A stretch of 50,194 nt of DNA from the NCBI GenBank assembly GCA_016283355.1, contig JAEEMS010000009.1:1-50194 (forward strand), given 5' to 3'. A program made the translations under genes and the position numbers. The notes below the pieces were generated by a model. The model was not told where the DNA came from. It ran no database searches and saw only the letters and a program-made list of their open reading frames with translations. How positions within the stretch are numbered: position 1 is the stretch's first letter; the number at the start of each line of letters is the position of its first letter. Below are positions 1-12,197 of this stretch, in pieces. This DNA comes from Elusimicrobiaceae bacterium (GTDB taxonomy: Bacteria; Elusimicrobiota; Elusimicrobia; Elusimicrobiales; Elusimicrobiaceae).

Positions 1-3000
1 AAGAAATAGTGGCTTTGGCGTTGCTGTCGCCGTATACATCGGTGGTGGCAACGTCCGTCACGCGGTACATGTCCACCGGGAACACCGCGCTTGCGCGGTT
101 CTTGACCGAGGGGAACATCGCATCATGTGCTTCCACCACAAACCAGTATGTGCCGGGCGTGACCATGCGGCCTTGTTCGTCGCGGCCATCCCAAGACAGC
201 GTATTCATTTGTTGCGAAACGTTGGCCGTACCTTGTTTAGGCGTTAAGTAGCGCACCACTACGCCGGCTGTGTTCTGCACGGAGGCAACGGCGTTAGCGT
301 CGCGCTCTAAAGCGTATTTAAAGATGAACGGATCCAACCCGTAGGCCGTGGGGCTAGAGCCGATGGTGGAGTAGCTGACCGGTTGGATGGTAATTCCCAC
401 CAAGCCGCGTTCCACTTCTAATGTACCCACCTTATATTTAAGTGTCTTTACACCCGTAAAACATTTGTTGTTAAGATTTTCCCCACAAGGTTTCCCTGGC
501 TCAAATGTTGGCCCACCGCCACCTGCCAAATTTGTATAAGCCCCATTGTAAGGTACTTCTGCCCATAGCACATACACATAATTGCCATCCGGCATAGGAG
601 CCCCATTCATAAAGGTCTCCTCACACCCGTTCTGGGCTCTGCACACGTCTCCATTTGATTCCTTATCATTATAAGGAACGATCCTTTTACATCCACCTAC
701 TATTTGACATGTACCATCCCACCGAGATGTATAATTCATACGTCCGGAACGGTTTTCCTGGCTGCGGTATACAAGGGATCCGGTGTAAACATCACCAGCA
801 ATCTTCTTAATCCCTGGGGGCGTGCCCGTGGGGGTCGAAGAATCTGTATCAATCGCATTTCCTTTATCGGCCTCAAATACTGTACCGGGAGTATAAATTT
901 CCCAATACACGTTGGAAGATTCGGTGGGAACGTAAGAAATCGTTGCGTACGCGGTAGATTTCTTGGTAAGTCCCGTTACTTGCACATCCGTTAATTTCAA
1001 CGGGTCTAGTGAGATTTGGCGTGTAACCGCGCGGGAAAAATCAATGCCCGGCCATTCATCACGCGATTTGGCCTGAATCGTGGCCACGTAGTTCCCTGCA
1101 GGGAGCAATATGCCCGAATCGTTACGTCCGTCCCAAGAATCAAAATCTTGTAAAATTTTATCAGTTGTGTCCCCTATCATTCCTTCGCCGTTGCGCGGTT
1201 GCCAATCTACTAACAACCGGACCGGATTGGTATCAATTGTAGCCGGAGCACCCGACGGTTGGTTTGTGGTATGCTCTGTATCACCACTTGCCCACGCATA
1301 TATTGCATCATCTTTTGATTCCGCATCAAAGATAGCAATGCGTACGTCTGCATCTTTACTGAGGCGGTATACCAATGTATAAGGTTGTGCGGCTACCGGC
1401 GTAATCTTACCCACTAACGACGGCGTACTGCGTACGGTATGCACGTTGGTAACGTCCACCTGTATCGGGATTTGGTTCATGGCGGGATAGACCATCATGG
1501 AATCAAATTCAATATTACCTTGCGTGATAATACCATCGCCGGGCGTATTGGTGGCTACGCGGCCGCGGAAGGCAAACTGTCCGTTTGATTTACCCATCTC
1601 GCCGGAGTGTTCATAGCTAGCGTCCCACGAGGCACAGAACGTGATAGGTTGGAGTGTGTGGGTAGGGGCGCCGTCGTTATTGAAAAACACACAATCGGAG
1701 TGTCCTGTGCTATTCCCTACTTTACAACCGCTACAAGCTTGCCCCGTTTTCCCCGTGGCTATAACCGTACACGAAGAACAGGTAGAATTTTCGCATACAT
1801 ATTTTGCACCGATACACTCTCCCCAAGTTCCATCACCATTGTCATAAGCTTCGGAATTCGTACACCTGTAAGAACCACATTTGTAACGCTCGGGACTGGC
1901 CGTCTCGGCGCCGGAGGTACCCGGGAACAAATCAATCGTGCGGACCGGAGTAGCGGCCTCTGCGTTGTAGAGGTTTTGGTTGTTGTAATATTTTAAAATT
2001 TCAAAGCGCACCTGTTGCAACGGGAACGCAATGGAATACGTGCTTTGCCCCTGCGGCAAGTTATTACAATATACTTCCATACACAACCCCAAACAATGGT
2101 TGGGGTAAAAATTGTCTTTGGGAATATCGTTGGGGTAGGGTTGGTCGTACTCAATCAACGCGGAGGAAACCCACGGGTCCCCCGCATGCACTTCACTGGC
2201 ACCCGGGTTCGTGCTGGTTGCCGGCTGTGTGGAGTAATACGTACCGGTTGAATAGCCACCATTCGGCTGTACTTGGTTACCTTGCGGAAAGGGAGTAGTA
2301 ACAAAACTGCGTTCATCCGTTGTGGCAACAGAATAGGAAGTACCATTAAGTGTTGTAATGGTTCTTTTGAATTTAAAAGTTTTACAGACTTTTGTGGTAT
2401 CTGTTTGTGACTTGTTCCCTGTCAAAAATATAGATGCACTACTTGAATACGCAGTATTCGGTTGGCGGAGGGTAGCGAGCATATTTGCTCGACAAGAAAT
2501 GTTATCTGTTATGTTAAACGAAGTTACAACCTCCCCGTTAAGCAAAATATCGGAAGTTCCATTGGCCTCCGCTTCCCACTCAATTCCACCATCTTTAAAT
2601 GTTTCCCCTGCCGACAAATCTCTAACAGAACCTTCAAGAGCATTCCAAAACATTGCATTTCTGGTATTTGATGTAACACCGGAAGTAACAGTACCCCCAC
2701 TACCGGAACCAGATAAACAGTTATCACTCGTACAAACAACTTGTAAAATTTTACAAGGGATACCTTCTCCCTCTGTCACGCTATCCATTCCATTATCCGC
2801 ATCTAACCAAGGAAATACAAAATATTTCCCCCCTGTGGTATTGATAACTTCCCCTTCCAATTCCAGTTCATCACCGCTGATAGTAATCTTAGGATAAGGT
2901 TTGGTAACATTCGTATCTGCAGAACAACGAAGCGAATTATACCGGACGGCATCTCGCATTTCGCCACCATAATTTGTCACGGGCCTGTAATTGTTTAACT

Positions 3001-3430
3001 CATCTTGGAGGAATCCTGCCAAACTAATAATTTCCCAACCAACAGGGTTATCTTGAAACCGTGCACCCACAGTGCCTTGGGAAACAACACTCCAACGGGC
3101 CGCTGTTGATGTAGATGGGGTATTCTGCCCCGTAGGGCTGTTTGTTCCCGAAATAATGGGGTGGGTATCTTCCTGGCCTTCCCCTCCGCCATTGCCACTG
3201 GGGCCGGGGTTGGTATTCCCCGTAGTTGTGGTGTTCAACACATCACAATACATCCCCGCTAAATTGCTGGGGGAATTTTTGTAGTACACGCCAACACGTT
3301 TTACCTCTGCCGTTTGGGCGAAAACAAGCGTAGAAAAAGCCGCCAACACCGCGGCAAAAACGGCAAACAACACCGTGCTACTTACTAAATTTTTAAGTGA
3401 ATAGAGTTTGTTTGTTTTGTGCTCATTCAT
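1..3430 (-). CDS. Large exported protein with FlgD-like Ig repeats (C-terminus beyond window)
   Basis: I checked the frame codon by codon from the ATG at 3430 to the left edge and found no stop, so at least 1143 residues are encoded and the 3' end is missing. Residues 1-38 form a signal peptide: a basic start, a hydrophobic stretch (VLFAVFAAVLAAFSTLVFA) and cleavage before QTAEV. About residues 515-600 hold ten cysteines, including CENSTCSSC and ACSGC pairs, which suggests a disulfide-rich module. Three later segments match the FlgD-type Ig fold pattern: WDGRNDSG followed by LPAGNYVATIQA (about 760-785), WDGTC followed by MPDGNYVYVLWAEV (about 905-960), and WDGRDEQG followed by TPGTYWFVVEA (about 1078-1100). 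In known proteins these folds lie near the C-terminus of secreted or surface proteins. An AAAGGGAAAC ribosome site precedes the start. Cell-surface or secreted location is well supported; the function is unknown. Confidence 0.85.
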   Translation of the reverse strand, partial: MNEHKTNKLYSLKNLVSSTVLFAVFAAVLAAFSTLVFAQTAEVKRVGVYYKNSPSNLAGMYCDVLNTTTTGNTNPGPSGNGGGEGQEDTHPIISGTNSPTGQNTPSTSTAARWSVVSQGTVGARFQDNPVGWEIISLAGFLQDELNNYRPVTNYGGEMRDAVRYNSLRCSADTNVTKPYPKITISGDELELEGEVINTTGGKYFVFPWLDADNGMDSVTEGEGIPCKILQVVCTSDNCLSGSGSGGTVTSGVTSNTRNAMFWNALEGSVRDLSAGETFKDGGIEWEAEANGTSDILLNGEVVTSFNITDNISCRANMLATLRQPNTAYSSSASIFLTGNKSQTDTTKVCKTFKFKRTITTLNGTSYSVATTDERSFVTTPFPQGNQVQPNGGYSTGTYYSTQPATSTNPGASEVHAGDPWVSSALIEYDQPYPNDIPKDNFYPNHCLGLCMEVYCNNLPQGQSTYSIAFPLQQVRFEILKYYNNQNLYNAEAATPVRTIDLFPGTSGAETASPERYKCGSYRCTNSEAYDNGDGTWGECIGAKYVCENSTCSSCTVIATGKTGQACSGCKVGNSTGHSDCVFFNNDGAPTHTLQPITFCASWDASYEHSGEMGKSNGQFAFRGRVATNTPGDGIITQGNIEFDSMMVYPAMNQIPIQVDVTNVHTVRSTPSLVGKITPVAAQPYTLVYRLSKDADVRIAIFDAESKDDAIYAWASGDTEHTTNQPSGAPATIDTNPVRLLVDWQPRNGEGMIGDTTDKILQDFDSWDGRNDSGILLPAGNYVATIQAKSRDEWPGIDFSRAVTRQISLDPLKLTDVQVTGLTKKSTAYATISYVPTESSNVYWEIYTPGTVFEADKGNAIDTDSSTPTGTPPGIKKIAGDVYTGSLVYRSQENRSGRMNYTSRWDGTCQIVGGCKRIVPYNDKESNGDVCRAQNGCEETFMNGAPMPDGNYVYVLWAEVPYNGAYTNLAGGGGPTFEPGKPCGENLNNKCFTGVKTLKYKVGTLEVERGLVGITIQPVSYSTIGSSPTAYGLDPFIFKYALERDANAVASVQNTAGVVVRYLTPKQGTANVSQQMNTLSWDGRDEQGRMVTPGTYWFVVEAHDAMFPSVKNRASAVFPVDMYRVTDVATTDVYGDSNAKATIS

Positions 3431-3673: not shown

Positions 3674-5185
3674 TTATTTAATGTCAAACAGTTCCGTTTG
3701 CCCGGCCACATCCCGGTACACTGCGTAATGCCCGCGCCCGTTTTGCTTGACAACGTACAACGCTTTATCCGCTTTTTCCAGCAGTTCTTCCGCGGTGGAA
3801 CCGTCTTGCGGGAAAGAGGAAATCCCCTGGCTGATGCTTAGATGTACTTCTTTGCCTTCCGTAAACCGCGTAGGGAGCACAATGGCGGTAATGCGCTGTT
3901 GCAAACGTTGGGCAATTACTTTGGCTTCCTCGCCATTGGCGCGCGGCAACATAATTACCATTTCATCCCCGCCAAAACGGCACGGCACATCCGTTTGGCG
4001 CAAGCAGCTGCGCACCACTTTACTGACTTCTTGCAAGGCCCAGTCCCCAATTTGGTGACCGTAAGTATCGTTGATTTGTTTGAAAAAATCAATGTCCATA
4101 ATCATCAGCGACAACGTTAAATCAAACCGTTTGCAACGGTAAATTTCTTCCGAAAATTTTTCGTTAAAATAACGCCGCACCGGAAGTTTGGTCAGCTCGT
4201 CATAATTGGAAAGTTCTTGCACGCGCTCAAACAACCGCGCGTTATCAATCGACAACGCCATTTGCGAAGCAAACTGTTGTAACGAAATAAAGTCCAAATA
4301 CCCTATCGCCCGCCGCGAAAGCAAATTATCAAACGCCAAAAAACCAACCTTGTTGCGCTGTACTTTGAGCGGAATGTAAAACACGCTGCGGCTGGAACGG
4401 TACGTGACCGAAGATTCAAAAACTTCTTTGAGCAGCGCACTTTCCCGTTCGCCCAAGCGGGAGACGTTTTCGTGCACCACTTCGCCGGAAACATCCACCC
4501 CTAAAATGGATTTAATGCGCCGGCCGTACGGGTCGGTTAAATACAAGCGAACACGGTCAAAACGGAAATATTTTTGTACGCCTTTTAAAATAAGCTCCAA
4601 ACCGTCGTTTAACCGCAACGAAGAGGCAAATATCGTAGACAAATCATTCAACGCCGTCGATACATTTAAACGTTGGTTTTTGGCTTGGTCAATTTCCGTG
4701 TTGCGTAAATTGTGCGAAATTTCTTGCGCCAATGCTTTGATTAAATCAAGTTCTTGCGGCGTAAAAACACGGCTTTTGCGGAACCGTTCCAAACGTAACA
4801 TTCCCAAACGTTCCTGCATAAACGTGTGCACTTCCCCGCCGCGCAACTCCATGCTGGGGCGTTGCCATTTAAGCAAGGCATAAACAGCCGGATAGCTTAA
4901 ATCCGTTGTTTCCGTAACGCCTTCTTGCAATAATTGTTTGAGAAACGGCGGTTCATTAACTACTGAAATATCTTCCTGTTTGTCCATGCAGTAATCTTTG
5001 GTGCACATCATCCGCAAAGACAACCGCGCTTCTTCCTGTTGCCAATTAAAAAAGTAAGCACGGTCTAATTTAAACAAGTTGCGCAACGCCGGCAAAGCAC
5101 ATTCCAAAAGTTCGCGCTTGTCTTGAAACGATTGGTTTAATTGTTTGTGAAATTTATAAAGGGTATATGATTTTCGGTCAAACAT
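3674..5185 (-). CDS. GAF-GGDEF diguanylate cyclase
   Basis: This 503-residue protein should condense two GTP into the second messenger c-di-GMP. Residues about 20-165 and 190-325 look like two GAF-type sensor domains joined by a helix, and residues about 340-495 are a GGDEF domain starting at NYDELTKLPVRRYF. The active-site loop is RFGGDEM (GGDEM at 405-409), with Met in place of the usual final Phe. The substrate segment NDTYGHQIGD keeps the Asp expected for c-di-GMP rather than hybrid cGAMP synthesis. RQTD at 396-399 is a product-inhibition (RxxD) site. There is no signal peptide or membrane segment, so the protein is cytoplasmic. It starts two bases after the stop of the solute-binding-like gene with a GAGGGAT ribosome site, so the two are almost certainly cotranscribed and may act together. 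Confidence 0.9.
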   Translation of the reverse strand: MFDRKSYTLYKFHKQLNQSFQDKRELLECALPALRNLFKLDRAYFFNWQQEEARLSLRMMCTKDYCMDKQEDISVVNEPPFLKQLLQEGVTETTDLSYPAVYALLKWQRPSMELRGGEVHTFMQERLGMLRLERFRKSRVFTPQELDLIKALAQEISHNLRNTEIDQAKNQRLNVSTALNDLSTIFASSLRLNDGLELILKGVQKYFRFDRVRLYLTDPYGRRIKSILGVDVSGEVVHENVSRLGERESALLKEVFESSVTYRSSRSVFYIPLKVQRNKVGFLAFDNLLSRRAIGYLDFISLQQFASQMALSIDNARLFERVQELSNYDELTKLPVRRYFNEKFSEEIYRCKRFDLTLSLMIMDIDFFKQINDTYGHQIGDWALQEVSKVVRSCLRQTDVPCRFGGDEMVIMLPRANGEEAKVIAQRLQQRITAIVLPTRFTEGKEVHLSISQGISSFPQDGSTAEELLEKADKALYVVKQNGRGHYAVYRDVAGQTELFDIK

Positions 5186-5187
5186 AA

Positions 5188-6387
5188 TTATCCCTCATAT
5201 ATGGACAACAGATATTCTATTTCCCGGGCGGCCGTGTCCAATTCTTTATCTAAAAATTGTTGTGAAAATTTTCCCGCCACAATTTGCGCCGCACATACCG
5301 CTAAGACGCGTTTTAAAATTTCCATTACGGACCCCGTTACCGTAATATTGGGCAACGTGCGCGCCGAAGCTAAAATGTTACTGTATGTCTCCAACCGCCT
5401 GGAAGACGAAAATACAAAATGTTCAAAGGCGTCTTCAAACGCCGGGAACGCATCAATCTTGGCCGCGTATTCAATTTGATTGTCCGCCCGCGCACAAAAT
5501 TTAATAAATTTAAGCGCGTTCTTTTTCTCCTGCGATAACGTATTGATAAATAAATTCATCCCCGACAAATACGCTTGCGAATTCTGCCCCGTTGACGGTA
5601 CCGGCAGTGTGCGAATTTGAATTCCGCGCGGCGCATTAAACGACCCTTGCTTACGTGATAAAATTAAACTGGCCTTGCCGGAGGCCATCGTCCCTAAAGA
5701 ACCGCGTTCCCGTAAAATGGGCATATACTCATGAATGGCTAAATTGATGTACGCACGTAATCCCTCTTTAAATGCTTTGGTACCAACAAATGTATTTTTA
5801 TAATCCGCAGAAAGCAAATCAACCCCTTTGCCCCAAATACACGGCAACGCAAGACGCATGGATAAAGAACCGCGCCAATCGCTGTTTTGCATCGGGTAAT
5901 AACCGGGGACATCCCGGAACGTGTTTTGTAACGCAGCGCAAACGCGCAACAACCCATTCCAAGTGGAAAGGTCTTTTTCCGGATTGGAAGATACCAATTT
6001 TAAATGGTCAGTACGGTAGTGTAATGCGCTGACATCAAACCACCAAGGATAAGAATAAATATCTTTTGTACCCGGTTGATAACAAGCATTTTTCAGTGGC
6101 AGCAAACAGTTGGTAAGCGAGAGCCCCGGATCCAATTCCGACAAATTGGCAGCCACACCTTCCCGCACCAAAAGCGCGGTCCAGTAATGCGGAATTTGAA
6201 TAATATCCGGGATTTCCTCTTCGTAAGTAGGATGCTTAATGGTAAACATCCGGCGCCACAAAATATTCCGCGTAAAAATACGAATTGAAATATTTATGGA
6301 CGGATTTTCTTTTTTGAACCGGGCTACAAATGCTTCCATGCGTTCTCTTGATTTGTCTCCCGCGTCCGGTAAAACCCATAAAATCAT
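5188..6387 (-). CDS. Solute-binding-protein-like protein without a signal peptide
   Basis: The 399 residues resemble the family 1 extracellular solute-binding fold (sugar ABC transporter type): an N-terminal strand MILWVLPDAGD, a helix with FVARFKKENPSI, IPDIIQIPHYWTALLVREG, YSYPWWFDVSALHYRTDHL and a C-terminal helical part. Family members are normally exported and often lipidated. Here the start ATG is preceded, in the same frame and only four codons upstream, by the tsaD stop codon, with an AGGAG site in between. No N-terminal extension is therefore possible and the protein should stay in the cytoplasm. No permease or ATPase gene is adjacent. The neighbour two bases downstream is a soluble GAF-GGDEF cyclase, so a ligand-sensing role is an inference from context. 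Recognition of the fold is by pattern only. Confidence 0.65.
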   Translation of the reverse strand: MILWVLPDAGDKSRERMEAFVARFKKENPSINISIRIFTRNILWRRMFTIKHPTYEEEIPDIIQIPHYWTALLVREGVAANLSELDPGLSLTNCLLPLKNACYQPGTKDIYSYPWWFDVSALHYRTDHLKLVSSNPEKDLSTWNGLLRVCAALQNTFRDVPGYYPMQNSDWRGSLSMRLALPCIWGKGVDLLSADYKNTFVGTKAFKEGLRAYINLAIHEYMPILRERGSLGTMASGKASLILSRKQGSFNAPRGIQIRTLPVPSTGQNSQAYLSGMNLFINTLSQEKKNALKFIKFCARADNQIEYAAKIDAFPAFEDAFEHFVFSSSRRLETYSNILASARTLPNITVTGSVMEILKRVLAVCAAQIVAGKFSQQFLDKELDTAAREIEYLLSIYEG

Positions 6388-6399
6388 AGTTGCTCCTGC

Positions 6400-7419
6400 T
6401 TATTTCCAACTGCGCACTTGCATATTGGGATCAATCGTTATGTTGCGTTGGAACGGCCGTCCTGTTTTTTCCGCATATGCTAGCTTTTGATAAGCCGCCA
6501 GGGCAATCATGGCTGCATTATCCGAGGAAAGTTTCCTTTCCACAAAGTGCACTTCTATTTTTTGCGCGGCGGCAGCTTGCTGCATTTGTTCGCGCAATAA
6601 CGTGTTAGCCGCTACACCACCACCTACAGCGATGTGATGCACTTTGTACTTTTGGGCAGCTTTTAATGTTTTGGTAACCAGGGTATCCACCATGGCTTGC
6701 TCAAAACTGGCGCATACATCAGGAATACTAAAATTTTTGTGGTCACGCAAGTAGTAACTGACCGCTGTTTTAATTCCGCTGAAGGAAAAATCCCACGTTC
6801 CCGGCAATAACGGACGCGGAAAAGCAATCCCGTCCCGCCGGCCGTTAAGCGCTTGTTTCGACACTTGCGGTCCGCCCGGATAGGGTAAGCCCAACAATTT
6901 GGCTACTTTGTCAAAAGCTTCTCCGGCAGCATCATCCCTCGTCCTTCCAAGCACTTTGTATTGCCCATAATCTTTTACATACCACAATTCCGTATGCCCA
7001 CCGGAAACGACCAATGCCACCAACGGAAATTTTAAGCGATTCTTTACTTCATTCCCTTCAAAATCACATGCAAAAATATGTCCTTCCAAATGGTTGACGC
7101 CTATCAGAGGTACATTTTTAAATTGTGCCAAAGTTTCCGCAGCCACTCTGCCTACCATTAACCCTCCCGGTAATCCGGGGCCACTGGCAAACGCCACATA
7201 ATCAAGCGGATGGTTTCCTAACGCCTCCTTTATGACCGTGGCAATTTTTGCCGCATGGGCCCGACTAGCCAATTCCGGCACAACTCCGTGATATTTTTTA
7301 TGTTCTTCAATTTGGGAATAAATTACATTGGTTACAATCTCTTTTCCTCCGCGTAGTAAAGCGGCGGAAGTTTCATCACAAGTAGATTCAATTCCCAAAA
7401 TCATAAAATCTTTTTTCAT
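6400..7419 (-). CDS. tsaD: tRNA N6-adenosine threonylcarbamoyltransferase TsaD
   Basis: TsaD transfers the threonylcarbamoyl group from threonylcarbamoyl-AMP to A37 of tRNAs that read ANN codons, working with TsaB and TsaE in the cytoplasm. The 339-residue protein has the family start LGIESTCDETSAALL, the metal-binding HLEGH (His110 and His114), VVSGGHTELW, GEAFDKVAKLLGLPYPGGP and, near the end, GGGVAANTLLR and SSDNAAMIA. Length is normal. The ATG at 7419 lies two bases after the ctpA stop; the internal Met6 is an alternative start. tsaB and tsaE are not in the window. Confidence 0.96.
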   Translation of the reverse strand: MKKDFMILGIESTCDETSAALLRGGKEIVTNVIYSQIEEHKKYHGVVPELASRAHAAKIATVIKEALGNHPLDYVAFASGPGLPGGLMVGRVAAETLAQFKNVPLIGVNHLEGHIFACDFEGNEVKNRLKFPLVALVVSGGHTELWYVKDYGQYKVLGRTRDDAAGEAFDKVAKLLGLPYPGGPQVSKQALNGRRDGIAFPRPLLPGTWDFSFSGIKTAVSYYLRDHKNFSIPDVCASFEQAMVDTLVTKTLKAAQKYKVHHIAVGGGVAANTLLREQMQQAAAAQKIEVHFVERKLSSDNAAMIALAAYQKLAYAEKTGRPFQRNITIDPNMQVRSWK

Positions 7420-7421
7420 AT

Positions 7422-8786
7422 TTATTCGGCAGAATTCGTTTTCTTTTCTTGCATTTGCTGTTTTTCTTTTTCTTCTTTTCGTTGTGCAGCAAGTTGTTTG
7501 GATTGCGCTTTAGCATCTTCCAGGGATATTTTCCCGGTCAACACTTCCACCGCTTTATCTAACACTTTATCTTCTTCTTTAAATTCGGGAACGGCTTGTT
7601 TGGTACCCGGCACGTACACAATATTATTGTACTGCATAAGCACTTTCACATCATCTTCCGGCTTTACGTCTACTTCGATATCCGGCCAAATTCCGCCCTC
7701 ATCCTCTTTCGTTTTGTCCCGGTAATTCCGGTGAATCAATTTGCCGGAAGGAGTGTAATACTTGGCAATCGTTAAACGCAAAGCTGAACCGCCGGCAAGC
7801 GGAATCACTTGCTGTACACTGGCCTTGCCGAACGTACGTTGCCCGACGATAAAAGCACGCCCGTTATCTTGTAACGCCCCCGATACAATTTCACTGGCAC
7901 TGGCAGATCCTTGATTGACAAGTACCGCCATGGGAAGTTGCGGATAGAGCGGCTTACCAACCGTTTTATATTCCTGATAATATTCCGGTTTACGCCCTTT
8001 GGTATATACAATCATCTCATTTTCCGGTAAAAATAATTTGGCAATATCCACCGCCCCTGTTAACAATCCACCGGGGTTAAAACGCAAATCCAAGATAAGA
8101 GAAGTCATCCCTTGTTTGGTTAACTCTGCCAAAGCTTTTTTTACTTCTTCGGTACTGTGCCCCGAAAAATCAACCAAATAAACATACCCTATGTTGTCGG
8201 GCAACATGCGGTAATAAACCACTTCCGGCACAATGGTAGCTCTCTTCAATGTAATGTCCGGAATCGGCTCATATTCCCCTTTGTCGTTTTTACGGCTGAT
8301 ACTTAATTTCACTTTACTCCCGGCCGGTCCACGCATTAACGCCACAGCTTCGTCCAACTTCATGGAAACAACCTCTTTACCATCCACCGCCAAAATACGA
8401 TCTCCCGGCATAATACCGGCCTTAAAAGCCGGAGTACCCGGCATGGGGGTAGCCACCGTAATAAAATCATCCGTTTTCTGCAAACGCATCCCAATACCGC
8501 CAAATTCTCCTTTCGTTTCGTTTTTTAAGGCCTTGTATTCTTTTTCATCCAGATACTGAGAAAAATCATCCAATTCATCCACCACCCCTTTGACAGCCCC
8601 CGTAATCAATACATCCGTGTCTATTGTTTCAACATAATTGTCTTTCACAAATTCGATGACATCTACTAATGTACGGATTTTTTTCAAGCTTTTGTCTACA
8701 GTCGCATAAGCGTAAGGAAACAATGTCCCCAAAAAGAAGATAACCGCTGCCCAAACAGCGAAACGATTTATTTTTGATTTTTTCAT
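7422..8786 (-). CDS. ctpA: S41 C-terminal processing peptidase (CtpA type)
   Basis: Periplasmic serine protease that trims C-termini of envelope proteins, including murein hydrolases and their regulators in several bacteria. Residues 1-28 are an export signal (FAVWAAVIFFLGTLFPYAYA). A PDZ domain covers about 95-165 (GGIGMRL, GIMPGDRILAVDG). The S41 catalytic core follows, with nucleophile Ser296 in NQGSASASEI and base Lys321 in GQRTFGKAS, spaced by 25 residues as in known members. The end is rich in Glu, Lys and Gln. I place the start at the ATG at 8786, which has an AGGGAT site; an upstream TTG at 8807 would overlap the previous gene and has no such site. The gene follows the EnvC-like gene in the same operon. 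Confidence 0.93.
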   Translation of the reverse strand: MKKSKINRFAVWAAVIFFLGTLFPYAYATVDKSLKKIRTLVDVIEFVKDNYVETIDTDVLITGAVKGVVDELDDFSQYLDEKEYKALKNETKGEFGGIGMRLQKTDDFITVATPMPGTPAFKAGIMPGDRILAVDGKEVVSMKLDEAVALMRGPAGSKVKLSISRKNDKGEYEPIPDITLKRATIVPEVVYYRMLPDNIGYVYLVDFSGHSTEEVKKALAELTKQGMTSLILDLRFNPGGLLTGAVDIAKLFLPENEMIVYTKGRKPEYYQEYKTVGKPLYPQLPMAVLVNQGSASASEIVSGALQDNGRAFIVGQRTFGKASVQQVIPLAGGSALRLTIAKYYTPSGKLIHRNYRDKTKEDEGGIWPDIEVDVKPEDDVKVLMQYNNIVYVPGTKQAVPEFKEEDKVLDKAVEVLTGKISLEDAKAQSKQLAAQRKEEKEKQQMQEKKTNSAE

Positions 8787-8794
8787 AAATATCC

Positions 8795-9955
8795 CTATTT
8801 TAACCAATGTTCTGGGTCAACCGCGGTAGTTCCTTGACGAATTTCAAAATAAACAGCACTTTGACCCGTCCCGGAAGAAGCTTGCGTATCCTTCCCAGCC
8901 GTTCCCAATATACCTTGTACGTCTAATTTACTACCTACGGAAACCTTTATTTCCTTCAAAAATCCATAAATGGTAAAAATACCTTTTCCGTTGTCCACAA
9001 TCACCACATTTCCATACGAACGGAACGGCCCCGCATAAATCACACTACCTGCCAAAACAGCGTGTACCGCCGTCCCGTACGTAGCCGATATTTTAATACC
9101 ATCTCTAAAAATCCAAGTATTCAAGTCCGCACGATACTCTTTACCAAACGGACTAATTACTTTCCCTTGCACGGGCCAAGGTAACGAGTGAGCCGGCAAA
9201 TTGATTTTAGGTCCTTCGTAAGGTTTGTCCGGCGAAGTACCCGCCGCTTTTTTATCGGAAGATTTACGCTTCCGTTCGAAAGAAGCCAACAAATTGTTTA
9301 ACTCGGTAGCCGATTTGTTTAATTCATTAATTTCCCGTCGAACAGCATCCGCCTTTCGTTTCGTGACATCCAAATCCTTTTTCTTCTTGTTAAATGATTT
9401 GGAAATAACAGCTTCTTCTTTTTTTACCTGGGAAGATTGCGCCAATAATTTTTTATTGCGTTCTTCAAAGGAAAGAATACGTTCTTTAGCTTCTTTTGTT
9501 TCCCGGTGAAGAGTCGATGCAAAAGCCGCCTTATGCGTCAGCATGCGGTCCACAAAGATTTTTTGTTCTAAACTATATCCCCCCGGGCAAGCCGCACACT
9601 CGGGTAAAAAATAAAAATTGGACAATTCCTCCAGCGCTACCCCTCGCCACAGCGGCATACTACGCTCCAAAGCCGCACGCTTTTCTTCCACCGACAAAAG
9701 TTTTTGTTCTAACAAAGAAATATCACTTTCCAATTTGTTTTTCAGCTGTTGCGTACGAGCTTGCTTTGATTGCAACGCAGAAATTTCCTTGGAAATTTTC
9801 TTTTCCTGTTCGCGATATTTTTTTAATTCTTTTTCTTTCTGCGCTGCTTCATTTTTAAGCTTGGCCAATTTTTGCTGATGTTCAGCTGCTTCGTCGCAAT
9901 AAAGCGGCAAAGCGATAAACATACAAATCAGAAATAAGTTTAAAATTTTTGCCAT
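8795..9955 (-). CDS. envC: EnvC-like murein hydrolase activator (coiled coil plus LytM domain)
   Basis: A 386-residue exported protein: signal peptide ILNLFLICMFIALPLYC, a long coiled coil (about 22-230) rich in Lys, Glu and Gln, then a LytM/M23-type domain (about 255-386). Catalytic M23 peptidases use HxxxD and HxH zinc ligands. Here the first site reads FRDGIKI and the second FTIYGFL, so the zinc ligands are missing, as in E. coli EnvC. EnvC activates septal amidases under control of FtsEX. The gene overlaps the ftsX stop by 16 bases, which fits that partnership. The Cys at residue 20 gives weak lipobox resemblance, but a lipoprotein is not clearly supported. Activator rather than enzyme is inferred from the lost ligands. 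Confidence 0.86.
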   Translation of the reverse strand: MAKILNLFLICMFIALPLYCDEAAEHQQKLAKLKNEAAQKEKELKKYREQEKKISKEISALQSKQARTQQLKNKLESDISLLEQKLLSVEEKRAALERSMPLWRGVALEELSNFYFLPECAACPGGYSLEQKIFVDRMLTHKAAFASTLHRETKEAKERILSFEERNKKLLAQSSQVKKEEAVISKSFNKKKKDLDVTKRKADAVRREINELNKSATELNNLLASFERKRKSSDKKAAGTSPDKPYEGPKINLPAHSLPWPVQGKVISPFGKEYRADLNTWIFRDGIKISATYGTAVHAVLAGSVIYAGPFRSYGNVVIVDNGKGIFTIYGFLKEIKVSVGSKLDVQGILGTAGKDTQASSGTGQSAVYFEIRQGTTAVDPEHWLK

Positions 9956-10722
9956 TTAGACAACGTCCACCCAAGTAATCCACAAAAAACAATTAGCAAT
10001 AATTCCCGCCCCAACGAAGTGAAATGGGAAACCGCTTGTGCCAAAAAACCGGTAGGATATAATAATCCGGCAAATACAACACAGGCCAATAACGCCGCTA
10101 AAATACCGGACAAAACTCCCCCCCAACTGTGCGTACCGGAAACGGGAGTAGCTTCTACCAAAAACATAAAAGTTAAAAATACCAATAAGGACAGCACAAA
10201 AACAAGATGCAATACTTTGGAACATATCCCCGTATAAAGAACCAAGGCGGCGTGTTCCTCGTTATAGTGAGGGACCAAATTTTCATATTCCGCGGCTAAA
10301 TTATCCACGAACGGCCGAATGTTATTAATAGCTTGTGGAGAAAGCGTCAATTCAAAATAAGCCGGCATCCTTTCTTTGCCCATCAAAAGCAGTGATTCTA
10401 CTAACTGCGGATTCTGTTGGCGAACAATGTCCAATGCATCCTTGGGAGAAAACAATTTTACGGTTTGAATGTCTGTTTTTTGATTTAAACTGTCACCCAA
10501 TTGGGAAAGTTGTTCATTATTTTCAGCGGAAGAAATCGTCAAAATCACTTTAAAGGAATCACGTAATTCCTGATAATAACTACTCAACCGAACATCCACA
10601 AAAATAAGCCCTTGCCACAACAACGCAATTGCAAATACCAACAAAAATAATTTGCGGTATAAGTGCGGTTGCTGTGGAATTTTTTTATCTTTTCTACGAG
10701 GTTCCTCAAAAAGATCGTCCAT
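9940..10722 (-). CDS. ftsX: FtsX-like cell division permease subunit
   Basis: FtsX is the membrane half of the FtsEX complex, which signals from the division ring to periplasmic murein hydrolase activators. The 260-residue protein has a cytoplasmic N-terminus, TM1 at about 25-42, a periplasmic domain (about 45-165, with the family-like LNQKTDIQTVKLFSPKDAL and RMPAYFELTL) and three further membrane helices at about 168-190, 200-224 and 238-254. It is a little shorter than typical FtsX (about 300). No ftsE lies next to it. It overlaps the EnvC-like gene, which strengthens the assignment. The start has a strong GGGGGAAAT site. Confidence 0.8.
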   Translation of the reverse strand: MDDLFEEPRRKDKKIPQQPHLYRKLFLLVFAIALLWQGLIFVDVRLSSYYQELRDSFKVILTISSAENNEQLSQLGDSLNQKTDIQTVKLFSPKDALDIVRQQNPQLVESLLLMGKERMPAYFELTLSPQAINNIRPFVDNLAAEYENLVPHYNEEHAALVLYTGICSKVLHLVFVLSLLVFLTFMFLVEATPVSGTHSWGGVLSGILAALLACVVFAGLLYPTGFLAQAVSHFTSLGRELLLIVFCGLLGWTLSKWQKF

Positions 10723-10748
10723 ATTTCCCCCTATTATTTAATCCCTTT

Positions 10749-12197
10749 TTAAGAAATAGTTTTGCTATATAAATCCAAATACGCTTGAGCGGAACGTTCC
10801 CAAGACAAATCTTGCCGCATGGCATTTTTAGCCAATCTTTGCCAAACACCTTTGCGTGTATATACCTGCAATGCGTTGGCTACTGTTTCAAAAATTCCCT
10901 GTTCATTGAGTTGACTGATAAAAAATCCGGTTGCGGTGTCGCTGTTATCCCCTGTATACCCACGCACCGTATCCACCAATCCCCCCACGCGGGATACTAC
11001 CGGCAACGTTCCATACTTCATAGAAATCAATTGCGAAAGTCCGCACGGCTCAAAACGCGAAGGCATCAAAAATAAATCGGCACCGGCATAAATACGATGT
11101 GCTAACTCTTCATCCAGGCGATTACTATAGCTCACCGCCCCGGGATGCTTGCGTGCCAAGCTCTGATACGCCTTTTCCAAACGGGGATCTCCCGTTCCCA
11201 AAATAACAAATTGTGCTTGATTTTTCAGCCGTTCAACCACACGGACCACCATATCAAGTCCCTTTTGATAATCCAACCGCGATACCATTCCCACTAGCGG
11301 GATATCCGGATCTTGCACCAATTTACACTGTTGCTGTAAAGTAAGTTTGGCGGCCATTTTTCCTTTTTCCATTTCCATACAATCGTAACCCATGGAAAGT
11401 ACCGGATCCAATTCCGGGTCCCACACATCGGTATCAATACCGTTGAGAATTCCGCAGAAACGGTCACTGCGCGTACGGAGGACCCCCTCCAAGCCAAATC
11501 CCATTGCCGCATTTTTCTGTACTTCTTTGGCATAATTAGGGCTGACCGTATTGATTTGATCCGCAAACACTAAACCACTTTTCAAAAAGCTAATTCCTCC
11601 GTAATATTCAAACTTTTCCGGGGTATAGTCCACAGGATGGAACCCCGCTTTACGGAAAGAAGAATACGGATAATGCCCCTGATAGGCAATATTGTGAATG
11701 GTAAATAAACTGTGGGTACGTGTATAAAAAGCATCTAACTTATAGACCGTTTTTAGATAGGCAGGGATGAGCCCCGTTTGCCAATCGTGGCAGTGAATAA
11801 TATCGGGTCGGAACCCAATAAATTTACACCCTTCCAAAACCGCTCGGTTAAAAAAGATAAACCGTTCATCGTTATCTCCGTATTCGCCTTCTTTGGTACG
11901 GTATAAAGCGGGACGGTCAAAATAATGACGGTTGTTAATGAAAAAAACGAGTACATTGCCCCAATTTACGTATGAAAGGGAGGCCTGCTCAATCTTATCG
12001 CCAATGGGAATCAAATAAACACCCGGGACAATTTTGAGAGAAGAAACCCGCGTAATATTGCGGTAATGCGGCAGGAACAATAAAACTTTGTTTCCCCTGC
12101 GCCCGGCAAACTGCTGGCAAAGCGCTCCGACCACATCGGCCAAACCGCCTGTTTTGCAAAAAGGGAAAGCTTCGCTGGCAGCCAGTACAATGTTCAT
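10749..12197 (-). CDS. glgA: Glycogen synthase GlgA
   Basis: GT5 enzyme that transfers glucose from ADP-glucose to the end of an alpha-1,4-glucan. The 482-residue protein has the ADP-glucose motif KTGGLADV (Lys15 onward), GLIPAYLK, FTIHNIAYQG, the second Rossmann domain with VSRLDYQKGLD and the C-terminal signature SRFEPCGLSQL with Glu and Cys in place. Length is normal. The start overlaps the scpB stop by four bases (ATGA) and has a GGAGGAAC site inside scpB. No other glg genes are adjacent, but malQ with starch-binding domains and a sugar permease sit elsewhere in the window, so storage and reuse of glucans is likely. Confidence 0.96.
   Translation of the reverse strand: MNIVLAASEAFPFCKTGGLADVVGALCQQFAGRRGNKVLLFLPHYRNITRVSSLKIVPGVYLIPIGDKIEQASLSYVNWGNVLVFFINNRHYFDRPALYRTKEGEYGDNDERFIFFNRAVLEGCKFIGFRPDIIHCHDWQTGLIPAYLKTVYKLDAFYTRTHSLFTIHNIAYQGHYPYSSFRKAGFHPVDYTPEKFEYYGGISFLKSGLVFADQINTVSPNYAKEVQKNAAMGFGLEGVLRTRSDRFCGILNGIDTDVWDPELDPVLSMGYDCMEMEKGKMAAKLTLQQQCKLVQDPDIPLVGMVSRLDYQKGLDMVVRVVERLKNQAQFVILGTGDPRLEKAYQSLARKHPGAVSYSNRLDEELAHRIYAGADLFLMPSRFEPCGLSQLISMKYGTLPVVSRVGGLVDTVRGYTGDNSDTATGFFISQLNEQGIFETVANALQVYTRKGVWQRLAKNAMRQDLSWERSAQAYLDLYSKTIS

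What the first reader, a model, noticed from the sequence alone, without database searches (positions are those of the whole stretch)
3674..6387. Cytoplasmic solute-binding-like protein paired with a diguanylate cyclase
The 399-residue protein resembles a sugar ABC transporter binding protein, yet the in-frame tsaD stop four codons before its start rules out a signal peptide. It lies two bases from a soluble GAF-GAF-GGDEF protein, with no permease near. This suggests an intracellular ligand receptor feeding a c-di-GMP signal, a use of this fold I do not know from other systems.
Basis: partly seen in the sequence, partly recalled or inferred. Interest (0 to 1): 0.7.

Follow-up and report, generated by a model that had tools for sequence, protein, structure and literature searches.

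The report
Cytosolic sugar-binding-like partner of diguanylate cyclase
A protein built like the sugar-catching part of a nutrient transporter, but kept inside the cell, is always encoded right beside the enzyme that makes the signal molecule c-di-GMP in Elusimicrobiota and a few other bacterial phyla, so it is probably an internal nutrient sensor that controls that signal.

Summary
The 399-aa protein has an oligosaccharide solute-binding-protein (SBP) fold: AlphaFold pLDDT 92, and all top PDB matches are oligosaccharide-binding proteins. No signal peptide is possible, because its frame opens four codons before ATG, straight into strand 1. Two bases on lies a soluble GAF-GAF-GGDEF cyclase with intact catalytic and RxxD sites.

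The pair is no local accident. Across Elusimicrobiota, Auribacterota, Omnitrophota and Caldisericota, all 84 evaluable members of this SBP clade lack a signal peptide and are followed by the cyclase. Their other neighbours change at least seven times. The paired SBPs sit on one side of a single branch (SH-aLRT 99). The window genome has no other SBP_bac_8 protein, only peptide-type permeases, and one canonical GGDEF protein; so this may be its main c-di-GMP source.

Best explanation: a cytosolic ligand receptor that regulates its partner cyclase. This is an all-cytoplasmic counterpart of periplasmic NspS-MbaA. Binding, ligand and effect on the cyclase are inferred, not shown. The pocket keeps W44, W69 and D/E118, but a conserved Arg/Lys replaces a stacking Trp in this order, hinting at a changed, perhaps anionic, ligand. 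I found no published description in the open-licence library searched. New variant of a known kind.

The parts
5188..6387 (-). Signal-less solute-binding-like protein (CUT1 oligosaccharide type), 399 aa
3674..5185 (-). Soluble GAF-GAF-GGDEF diguanylate cyclase, 503 aa
4766..5185 (-). First GAF-like domain of the cyclase (residues 1-140), followed by a long helix (143-188)
   Evidence: AF2 model; weak Pfam
4235..4612 (-). Second GAF domain (residues 192-317), joined by helix 296-327 to GGDEF
   Evidence: Pfam GAF_3; model
3731..4207 (-). GGDEF domain
   Evidence: Pfam PF00990 162.9 bits
3989..4000 (-). RxxD inhibitory-site motif (RQTD, residues 396-399), present in 33 of 33 paired cyclases
3962..3973 (-). 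GGDE signature (residues 405-408), GG(D/E)E in 33 of 33
6268..6270 (-). SBP Arg40: takes the place of ligand-site Trp41 of the Thermus beta-glycoside-binding protein; R in 14 and K in 1 of 15 Elusimicrobiales members, W in 9 of 11 other paired SBPs
6181..6183 (-). SBP Trp69 (Trp67 of the Thermus protein), invariant
6034..6036 (-). SBP Asp118 (Glu117 of the Thermus protein), D or E in 24 of 26 paired SBPs
6400..7419 (-). tsaD, upstream neighbour in the order (absent beside the pair in other lineages)
7422..8807 (-). S41 carboxy-terminal protease, conserved upstream neighbour in the order

Best explanation
The SBP-like protein is a cytosolic ligand receptor, not a transporter part. Shown by sequence: its fold, the absence of a signal peptide, its fixed gene coupling to the cyclase and purifying selection. 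Inferred: it closes on a small solute in the cytosol, most likely a sugar, oligosaccharide or sugar derivative made or imported by the cell. The open or closed form then binds the tandem GAF region of the cyclase and changes its GGDEF dimer activity, so that c-di-GMP follows the internal level of that solute. The RxxD site would supply the usual product inhibition. In the window genome this is the only GGDEF protein with a canonical signature, so the pair would set most of the c-di-GMP read by its PilZ protein and removed by its single EAL protein.
For: Fold and fit: AF2 pLDDT 92.3; Foldseek top hits are beta-glycoside-, cellodextrin- and beta-1,2-glucan-binding proteins, TM 0.79-0.84, E down to 7e-27. 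Cytosolic: no signal in 85 of 85 non-redundant clade members. Coupling: 84 of 84 evaluable followed by the cyclase, on one side of a branch with SH-aLRT 99, in at least seven different contexts. Not transport: the own genome holds no other SBP_bac_8 protein, and its only BPD permeases are an Opp/Dpp-type pair. Active cyclase expected: GG(D/E)E, the RxxD site and the conserved Asp/Asn positions checked are intact in 33 of 33; the other two GGDEF domains of the genome are degenerate, AADRF and GGDDF. Selection: dN 0.11 against dS about 1.8 (saturated), close to TsaD and the cyclase. SBP distances follow those of the cyclase's GAF half (r 0.89) more than its GGDEF half (0.77). Pocket residues W44, W69 and D/E118 kept. 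Sugar context elsewhere: in two other Elusimicrobiota families of a different class the pair lies directly behind an exported SBP and two permeases.
Against: No binding, ligand or activity data. The Trp-to-Arg change and the low identity between families (about 25%) mean the ancestral sugar cannot be assumed. Co-divergence of neighbouring genes is partly species phylogeny. No SBP-GGDEF fusion protein was found. No complex could be modelled with the tools.
Confidence: 0.68

Rival explanations
1. Ligand-free scaffold: the SBP fold binds the cyclase constitutively to stabilise, silence or place it (for example near the FtsX/EnvC-like/CTP division genes of the same gene row) and no longer senses a solute.
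For: The pocket Trp is changed to Arg in the whole order; the FtsX-M23-CTP-TsaD-SBP-cyclase gene order is conserved in two families; the family diverges fast, about 25% identity between families.
Against: W44, W69 and D/E118 are kept, and the Arg is itself conserved (14 R, 1 K of 15), which looks like a retuned rather than a lost pocket. Outside the order the pocket is ordinary and the FtsX row is absent.
Confidence: 0.14
2. Operon bystander: the two genes are co-transcribed but act separately, the SBP for example as a cytosolic carbohydrate buffer or chaperone.
For: Adjacency alone does not prove contact; a separate clade of signal-less SBPs in Anaerolineae lies mostly next to glycoside phosphorylase and hydrolase genes without a cyclase.
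Against: The pairing stays while every other neighbour changes, in four phyla and 84 of 84 cases, always with the SBP first and usually within a few bases.
Confidence: 0.1
3. Transporter component exported by an unusual route, or with a mis-called start.
For: It belongs to a family whose ordinary members are exported; L073 and L075 carry the pair behind an ABC operon, and one Anaerolineae signal-less SBP (L217) neighbours two permeases.
Against: The in-frame stop leaves four codons before ATG; no clade member has a signal; the genome has no sugar-type permease; L073 and L075 operons already have their own exported SBP.
Confidence: 0.03
4. Reverse control: the cyclase or c-di-GMP regulates the SBP, which delivers or sequesters a glycan (for example near glycogen metabolism, glgA lying upstream in the same gene row).
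For: glgA lies in the same gene row in family f1; c-di-GMP controls glycogen debranching in Streptomyces (PMC9530166).
Against: glgA was not found in the row in the sampled f2 loci, whose reach upstream is limited, and other lineages lack it; no c-di-GMP-binding motif was noted in the SBP.
Confidence: 0.05

Closest known systems
NspS-MbaA (Vibrio cholerae, Sinorhizobium meliloti): polyamine SBP controlling a GGDEF-EAL receptor (PMC9993111, PMC5646818, PMC8967002)
   Same: A separate SBP encoded with, and controlling, a c-di-GMP enzyme
   Different: There the SBP is periplasmic and acts on the periplasmic domain of a membrane protein; here both partners look cytosolic, the receptor is GAF-GAF-GGDEF without EAL, and the SBP is of the oligosaccharide type. 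A periplasmic relative of this SBP beside a dCache-HAMP-GGDEF-EAL protein was found in Paenibacillus (L096)
Oligosaccharide SBPs of ABC transporters: Thermus beta-glycoside-binding protein (7c6x series), CbpB of Clostridium thermocellum (7x0x), Lin1841 (5ysx)
   Same: Fold, length, several ligand-site residues
   Different: No signal peptide, no cognate permease, paired with a cyclase, ligand-site Trp41 replaced by Arg in this order
SiaC-SiaD (Pseudomonas aeruginosa; complex 7e6g)
   Same: A soluble partner protein, encoded with a soluble cyclase, controls it in the cytosol (from general knowledge; the PDB title calls SiaC the activator)
   Different: SiaC is not an SBP and is not thought to sense a solute
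EIIA-Glc with PdeS in Vibrio cholerae (reviewed in PMC8846402)
   Same: A cytosolic sugar-status protein controls a c-di-GMP enzyme by contact
   Different: Phosphorylation-based PTS protein and a phosphodiesterase, not an SBP fold with a cyclase

Membership tests
ABC-transporter solute-binding protein (CUT1 type) | SBP fold with two lobes and hinge | tested here: met
   Pfam; AF2 and Foldseek
ABC-transporter solute-binding protein (CUT1 type) | Signal peptide or lipobox | tested here: not met
ABC-transporter solute-binding protein (CUT1 type) | Cognate permease in the operon or genome | tested here: not met
   Only an Opp/Dpp-type permease pair in a 96%-complete genome
ABC-transporter solute-binding protein (CUT1 type) | Sugar-binding pocket residues | tested here: inconclusive
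   W44, W69, D/E118 kept; Trp41 equivalent is Arg; Trp177 equivalent not kept
NspS-MbaA type SBP-controlled c-di-GMP receptor | SBP gene coupled to a GGDEF gene | tested here: met
   84 of 84
NspS-MbaA type SBP-controlled c-di-GMP receptor | Periplasmic SBP and membrane receptor with periplasmic domain | tested here: not met
   No signal; window cyclase model is two GAF domains plus GGDEF without a membrane segment
NspS-MbaA type SBP-controlled c-di-GMP receptor | SBP binds the receptor and changes its activity | not testable with these tools
   Needs biochemistry
Diguanylate cyclase (GGDEF) | GG(D/E)E signature and metal/guanine-site residues | tested here: met
   33 of 33 at the positions checked
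Diguanylate cyclase (GGDEF) | c-di-GMP synthesis | not testable with these tools
   Needs enzyme assay

The most novel reading that the evidence does not exclude
A widespread, previously undescribed cytosolic receptor class: an SBP lineage that lost export once, became the dedicated input of a GAF-GAF cyclase, and reports an internal metabolite to c-di-GMP. In Elusimicrobiales the conserved Arg in place of a stacking Trp would make it a sensor of an anionic sugar, such as a sugar phosphate or uronate, and the main switch of c-di-GMP in these reduced genomes.
Probability: 0.35. Interest if true: 0.78.

Novelty: new variant of a known kind. Interest (0 to 1): 0.62.

Why it matters
SBPs are regarded as extracytoplasmic, and surveys set aside those without signal peptides for manual curation (PMC9602780); the c-di-GMP sensing review treats such domains as periplasmic (PMC8846402). 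A conserved, signal-less SBP dedicated to a cyclase shows the fold can be reused as an intracellular metabolite receptor, gives a testable input for c-di-GMP in an almost unstudied phylum, and offers a simple two-protein system for testing how an SBP can control a GGDEF dimer without a membrane.

Tried and rejected
A missed signal peptide or mis-called start: rejected by stop-to-stop frames in 85 relatives. Matches of 750-785 aa outside the order: these are SBP-permease fusions with signal peptides, i.e. ordinary transport proteins, except L070, where the long frame is only a GC-rich open frame. A tsaD-linked function: rejected as the general rule because the pair leaves tsaD in other classes and phyla. 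A glycogen link through glgA: glgA is in the row only in f1 among the sampled loci, which do not all reach far enough upstream. An Anaerolineae origin of the pair: the Anaerolineae signal-less SBPs form a separate clade, mostly without a cyclase. Text searches for a prior description gave nothing relevant.

Full report
WHAT IS THERE. On the minus strand the window holds tsaD (6400-7419), a 399-aa SBP-like gene (5188-6387) and a 503-aa GAF/GGDEF gene (3674-5185), two bases apart. The SBP frame opens at the in-frame tsaD stop; GCA GGA GCA ACT ATG follows, so there is no room for a signal peptide and the protein starts in its first beta strand. Pfam gives SBP_bac_8 (1.4e-13) and SBP_bac_1, and GGDEF (4.7e-47) with GAF. 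phmmer against the PDB finds oligosaccharide-binding proteins, best E 5e-23, over nearly the full length.

FOLD. An AlphaFold2 model from 46 natural relatives has pLDDT 92.3 and pTM 0.90. Foldseek ranks the Thermus beta-glycoside-binding protein (TM 0.79-0.84, E down to 7e-27), CbpB of C. thermocellum and the beta-1,2-glucan-binding Lin1841 highest. The cyclase model (pLDDT 87.9; pTM 0.58, so domain placement is unsure) shows two GAF-like domains joined by a 46-residue helix, a second signalling helix and GGDEF, with no membrane segment. PDB matches are phytochrome-type and other cyclases.

CONSERVATION OF THE PAIR. The SBP is found in 59 of 61 related genomes and in 43 of 43 with at least 90% completeness. 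In both families of the order the row CTP protease - TsaD - SBP - cyclase is kept, with FtsX and an M23 protein upstream where the loci reach. Elsewhere in the phylum, in families f6, f14 and f22, the pair is kept without tsaD. A scan of 84,980 species genomes and an HMM check found the same signal-less SBP followed by GAF-GGDEF in Candidatus Auribacterota, Candidatus Omnitrophota and Caldiserica. Titles of those loci also show that the window's phylum is Elusimicrobiota (contigs of L072, L073, L075 and L070 reappear as named Elusimicrobia or Endomicrobiales records).

Of 85 non-redundant clade members, 81 were scored automatically as followed by the cyclase. L003, L010 and L045 also have it (truncated, or in a long GC-rich frame), and L036 ends with its contig. 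That makes 84 of 84 evaluable. The 270-bit cut-off was placed in a gap between 273 and 264 bits of a model built from clade members, so membership is partly circular. A tree made without that score puts all paired SBPs on one side of one branch, SH-aLRT 99, separate from exported SBPs and from a signal-less Anaerolineae clade. The tree was a quick search with midpoint drawing, so 'one loss of export' is consistent with the tree, not proven.

CONTEXT TURNOVER. Neighbours of the pair outside the order: an ABC operon with exported SBP and two permeases (L073, L075), chorismate synthase and shikimate kinase (L088), scpA (L089), a DNA methylase on one side and cytidylate kinase on the other (L092), a histidine kinase (L084), a glycoside-hydrolase-like gene (L097), a DUF4143 ATPase (L071). 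Only SBP and cyclase stay together, always SBP first, usually within a few bases. This is the main argument for a functional unit.

NOT TRANSPORT. In the window's genome (96% complete) this is the only SBP_bac_8 protein, and the only BPD_transp_1 permeases are one adjacent pair with BPD_transp_1_N and OppC_N domains, i.e. peptide type. Within paired SBPs no hydrophobic stretch precedes strand 1 (highest 12-residue Kyte-Doolittle mean 1.1), while ordinary relatives show Sec or lipoprotein signals.

CYCLASE AND OUTPUT. GG(D/E)E, RxxD and the four conserved Asp/Asn positions checked are kept in 33 of 33 paired cyclases. The genome's other GGDEF domains are degenerate: AADRF in a GGDEF-EAL protein and GGDDF in a REC protein. 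It has one EAL, one PilZ (with RxxxR and DxSxxG motifs by eye) and one MshEN match. So the pair is plausibly the main c-di-GMP source; this is inference. A few paired cyclases of other lineages have a stretch hydrophobic enough (19-residue mean 2.2-2.3; L031, L033, L089) to deserve a membrane check, which was not done.

POCKET. Residues named as mutants in the 7c6 PDB titles (W41, W67, E117, W177) were taken as ligand-site residues; I could not read the original paper. By sequence alignment W67 and E117 correspond to W69 (invariant) and D118 (D/E in 24 of 26), while W41 is Arg40 here: R 14 and K 1 of 15 in the order, W in 9 of 11 other paired SBPs, W in 27 of 30 exported ones. A conserved basic residue suggests a retuned pocket and perhaps an anionic ligand. 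This is a hypothesis.

SELECTION AND CO-DIVERGENCE. Window against its 84%-identical relative: dN 0.106 and dS 1.82 for the SBP (0.067/1.50 cyclase, 0.083/1.80 TsaD); dS is saturated, so only strong purifying selection can be claimed. SBP distances correlate with the GAF half of the cyclase at 0.89 and with the GGDEF half at 0.77 over 27 genomes; shared ancestry explains much of this.

COMPARISON. SBP-driven c-di-GMP receptors are known with a periplasmic SBP (NspS-MbaA; PMC9993111, PMC5646818, PMC8967002), and PMC9602780 lists such cases while noting that cytosolic proteins can match SBP profiles. PMC8846402 describes this domain clan in c-di-GMP proteins as periplasmic. My searches of the open library found no cytosolic SBP-cyclase pair; subscription papers were not searched. 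In Paenibacillus a related exported SBP sits beside a dCache-HAMP-GGDEF-EAL protein, a periplasmic version of the same idea.

VERDICT. Real, conserved, and best read as a cytosolic receptor-cyclase module. Shown: fold, lack of signal, pairing, intact cyclase motifs, absence of a cognate transporter in the window genome. Inferred: contact, ligand, direction of control.

Noticed in passing
L202 (Anaerolineales), 3962-11405: Two tandem signal-less SBPs between a PAS-GGDEF gene and a GH1 beta-glucosidase, with a GH94 phosphorylase upstream: a second, separate pairing of cytosolic SBPs with a cyclase.
   Followed up: partly
L203-L220 (Anaerolineae class): A distinct clade of signal-less SBPs, up to seven matches in one genome, often beside GH94, GH4 or GH13 genes.
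   Followed up: partly
L217:5819-9194: A signal-less SBP directly behind two BPD_transp_1 permeases and before a GH4 gene; whether it serves that transporter is unexplained.
   Followed up: no
L073:3430-9887 and L075:3290-11467: Operon of exported SBP, two permeases, signal-less SBP, cyclase and an alpha/beta-hydrolase: suggests the inner SBP senses what the outer one imports.
   Followed up: partly
L096:3845-7819 (Paenibacillus arenilitoris): Exported SBP beside a dCache-HAMP-GGDEF-EAL protein, an NspS-MbaA-like arrangement with a sugar-type SBP.
   Followed up: partly
window 2-3430 (-): Large secreted protein (over 1143 aa, runs off the window) downstream of the cyclase on the same strand.
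   Followed up: no
L241 and L242 (window genome): The genome's other GGDEF domains are degenerate: AADRF in a GGDEF-EAL protein and GGDDF in a REC protein.
   Followed up: yes
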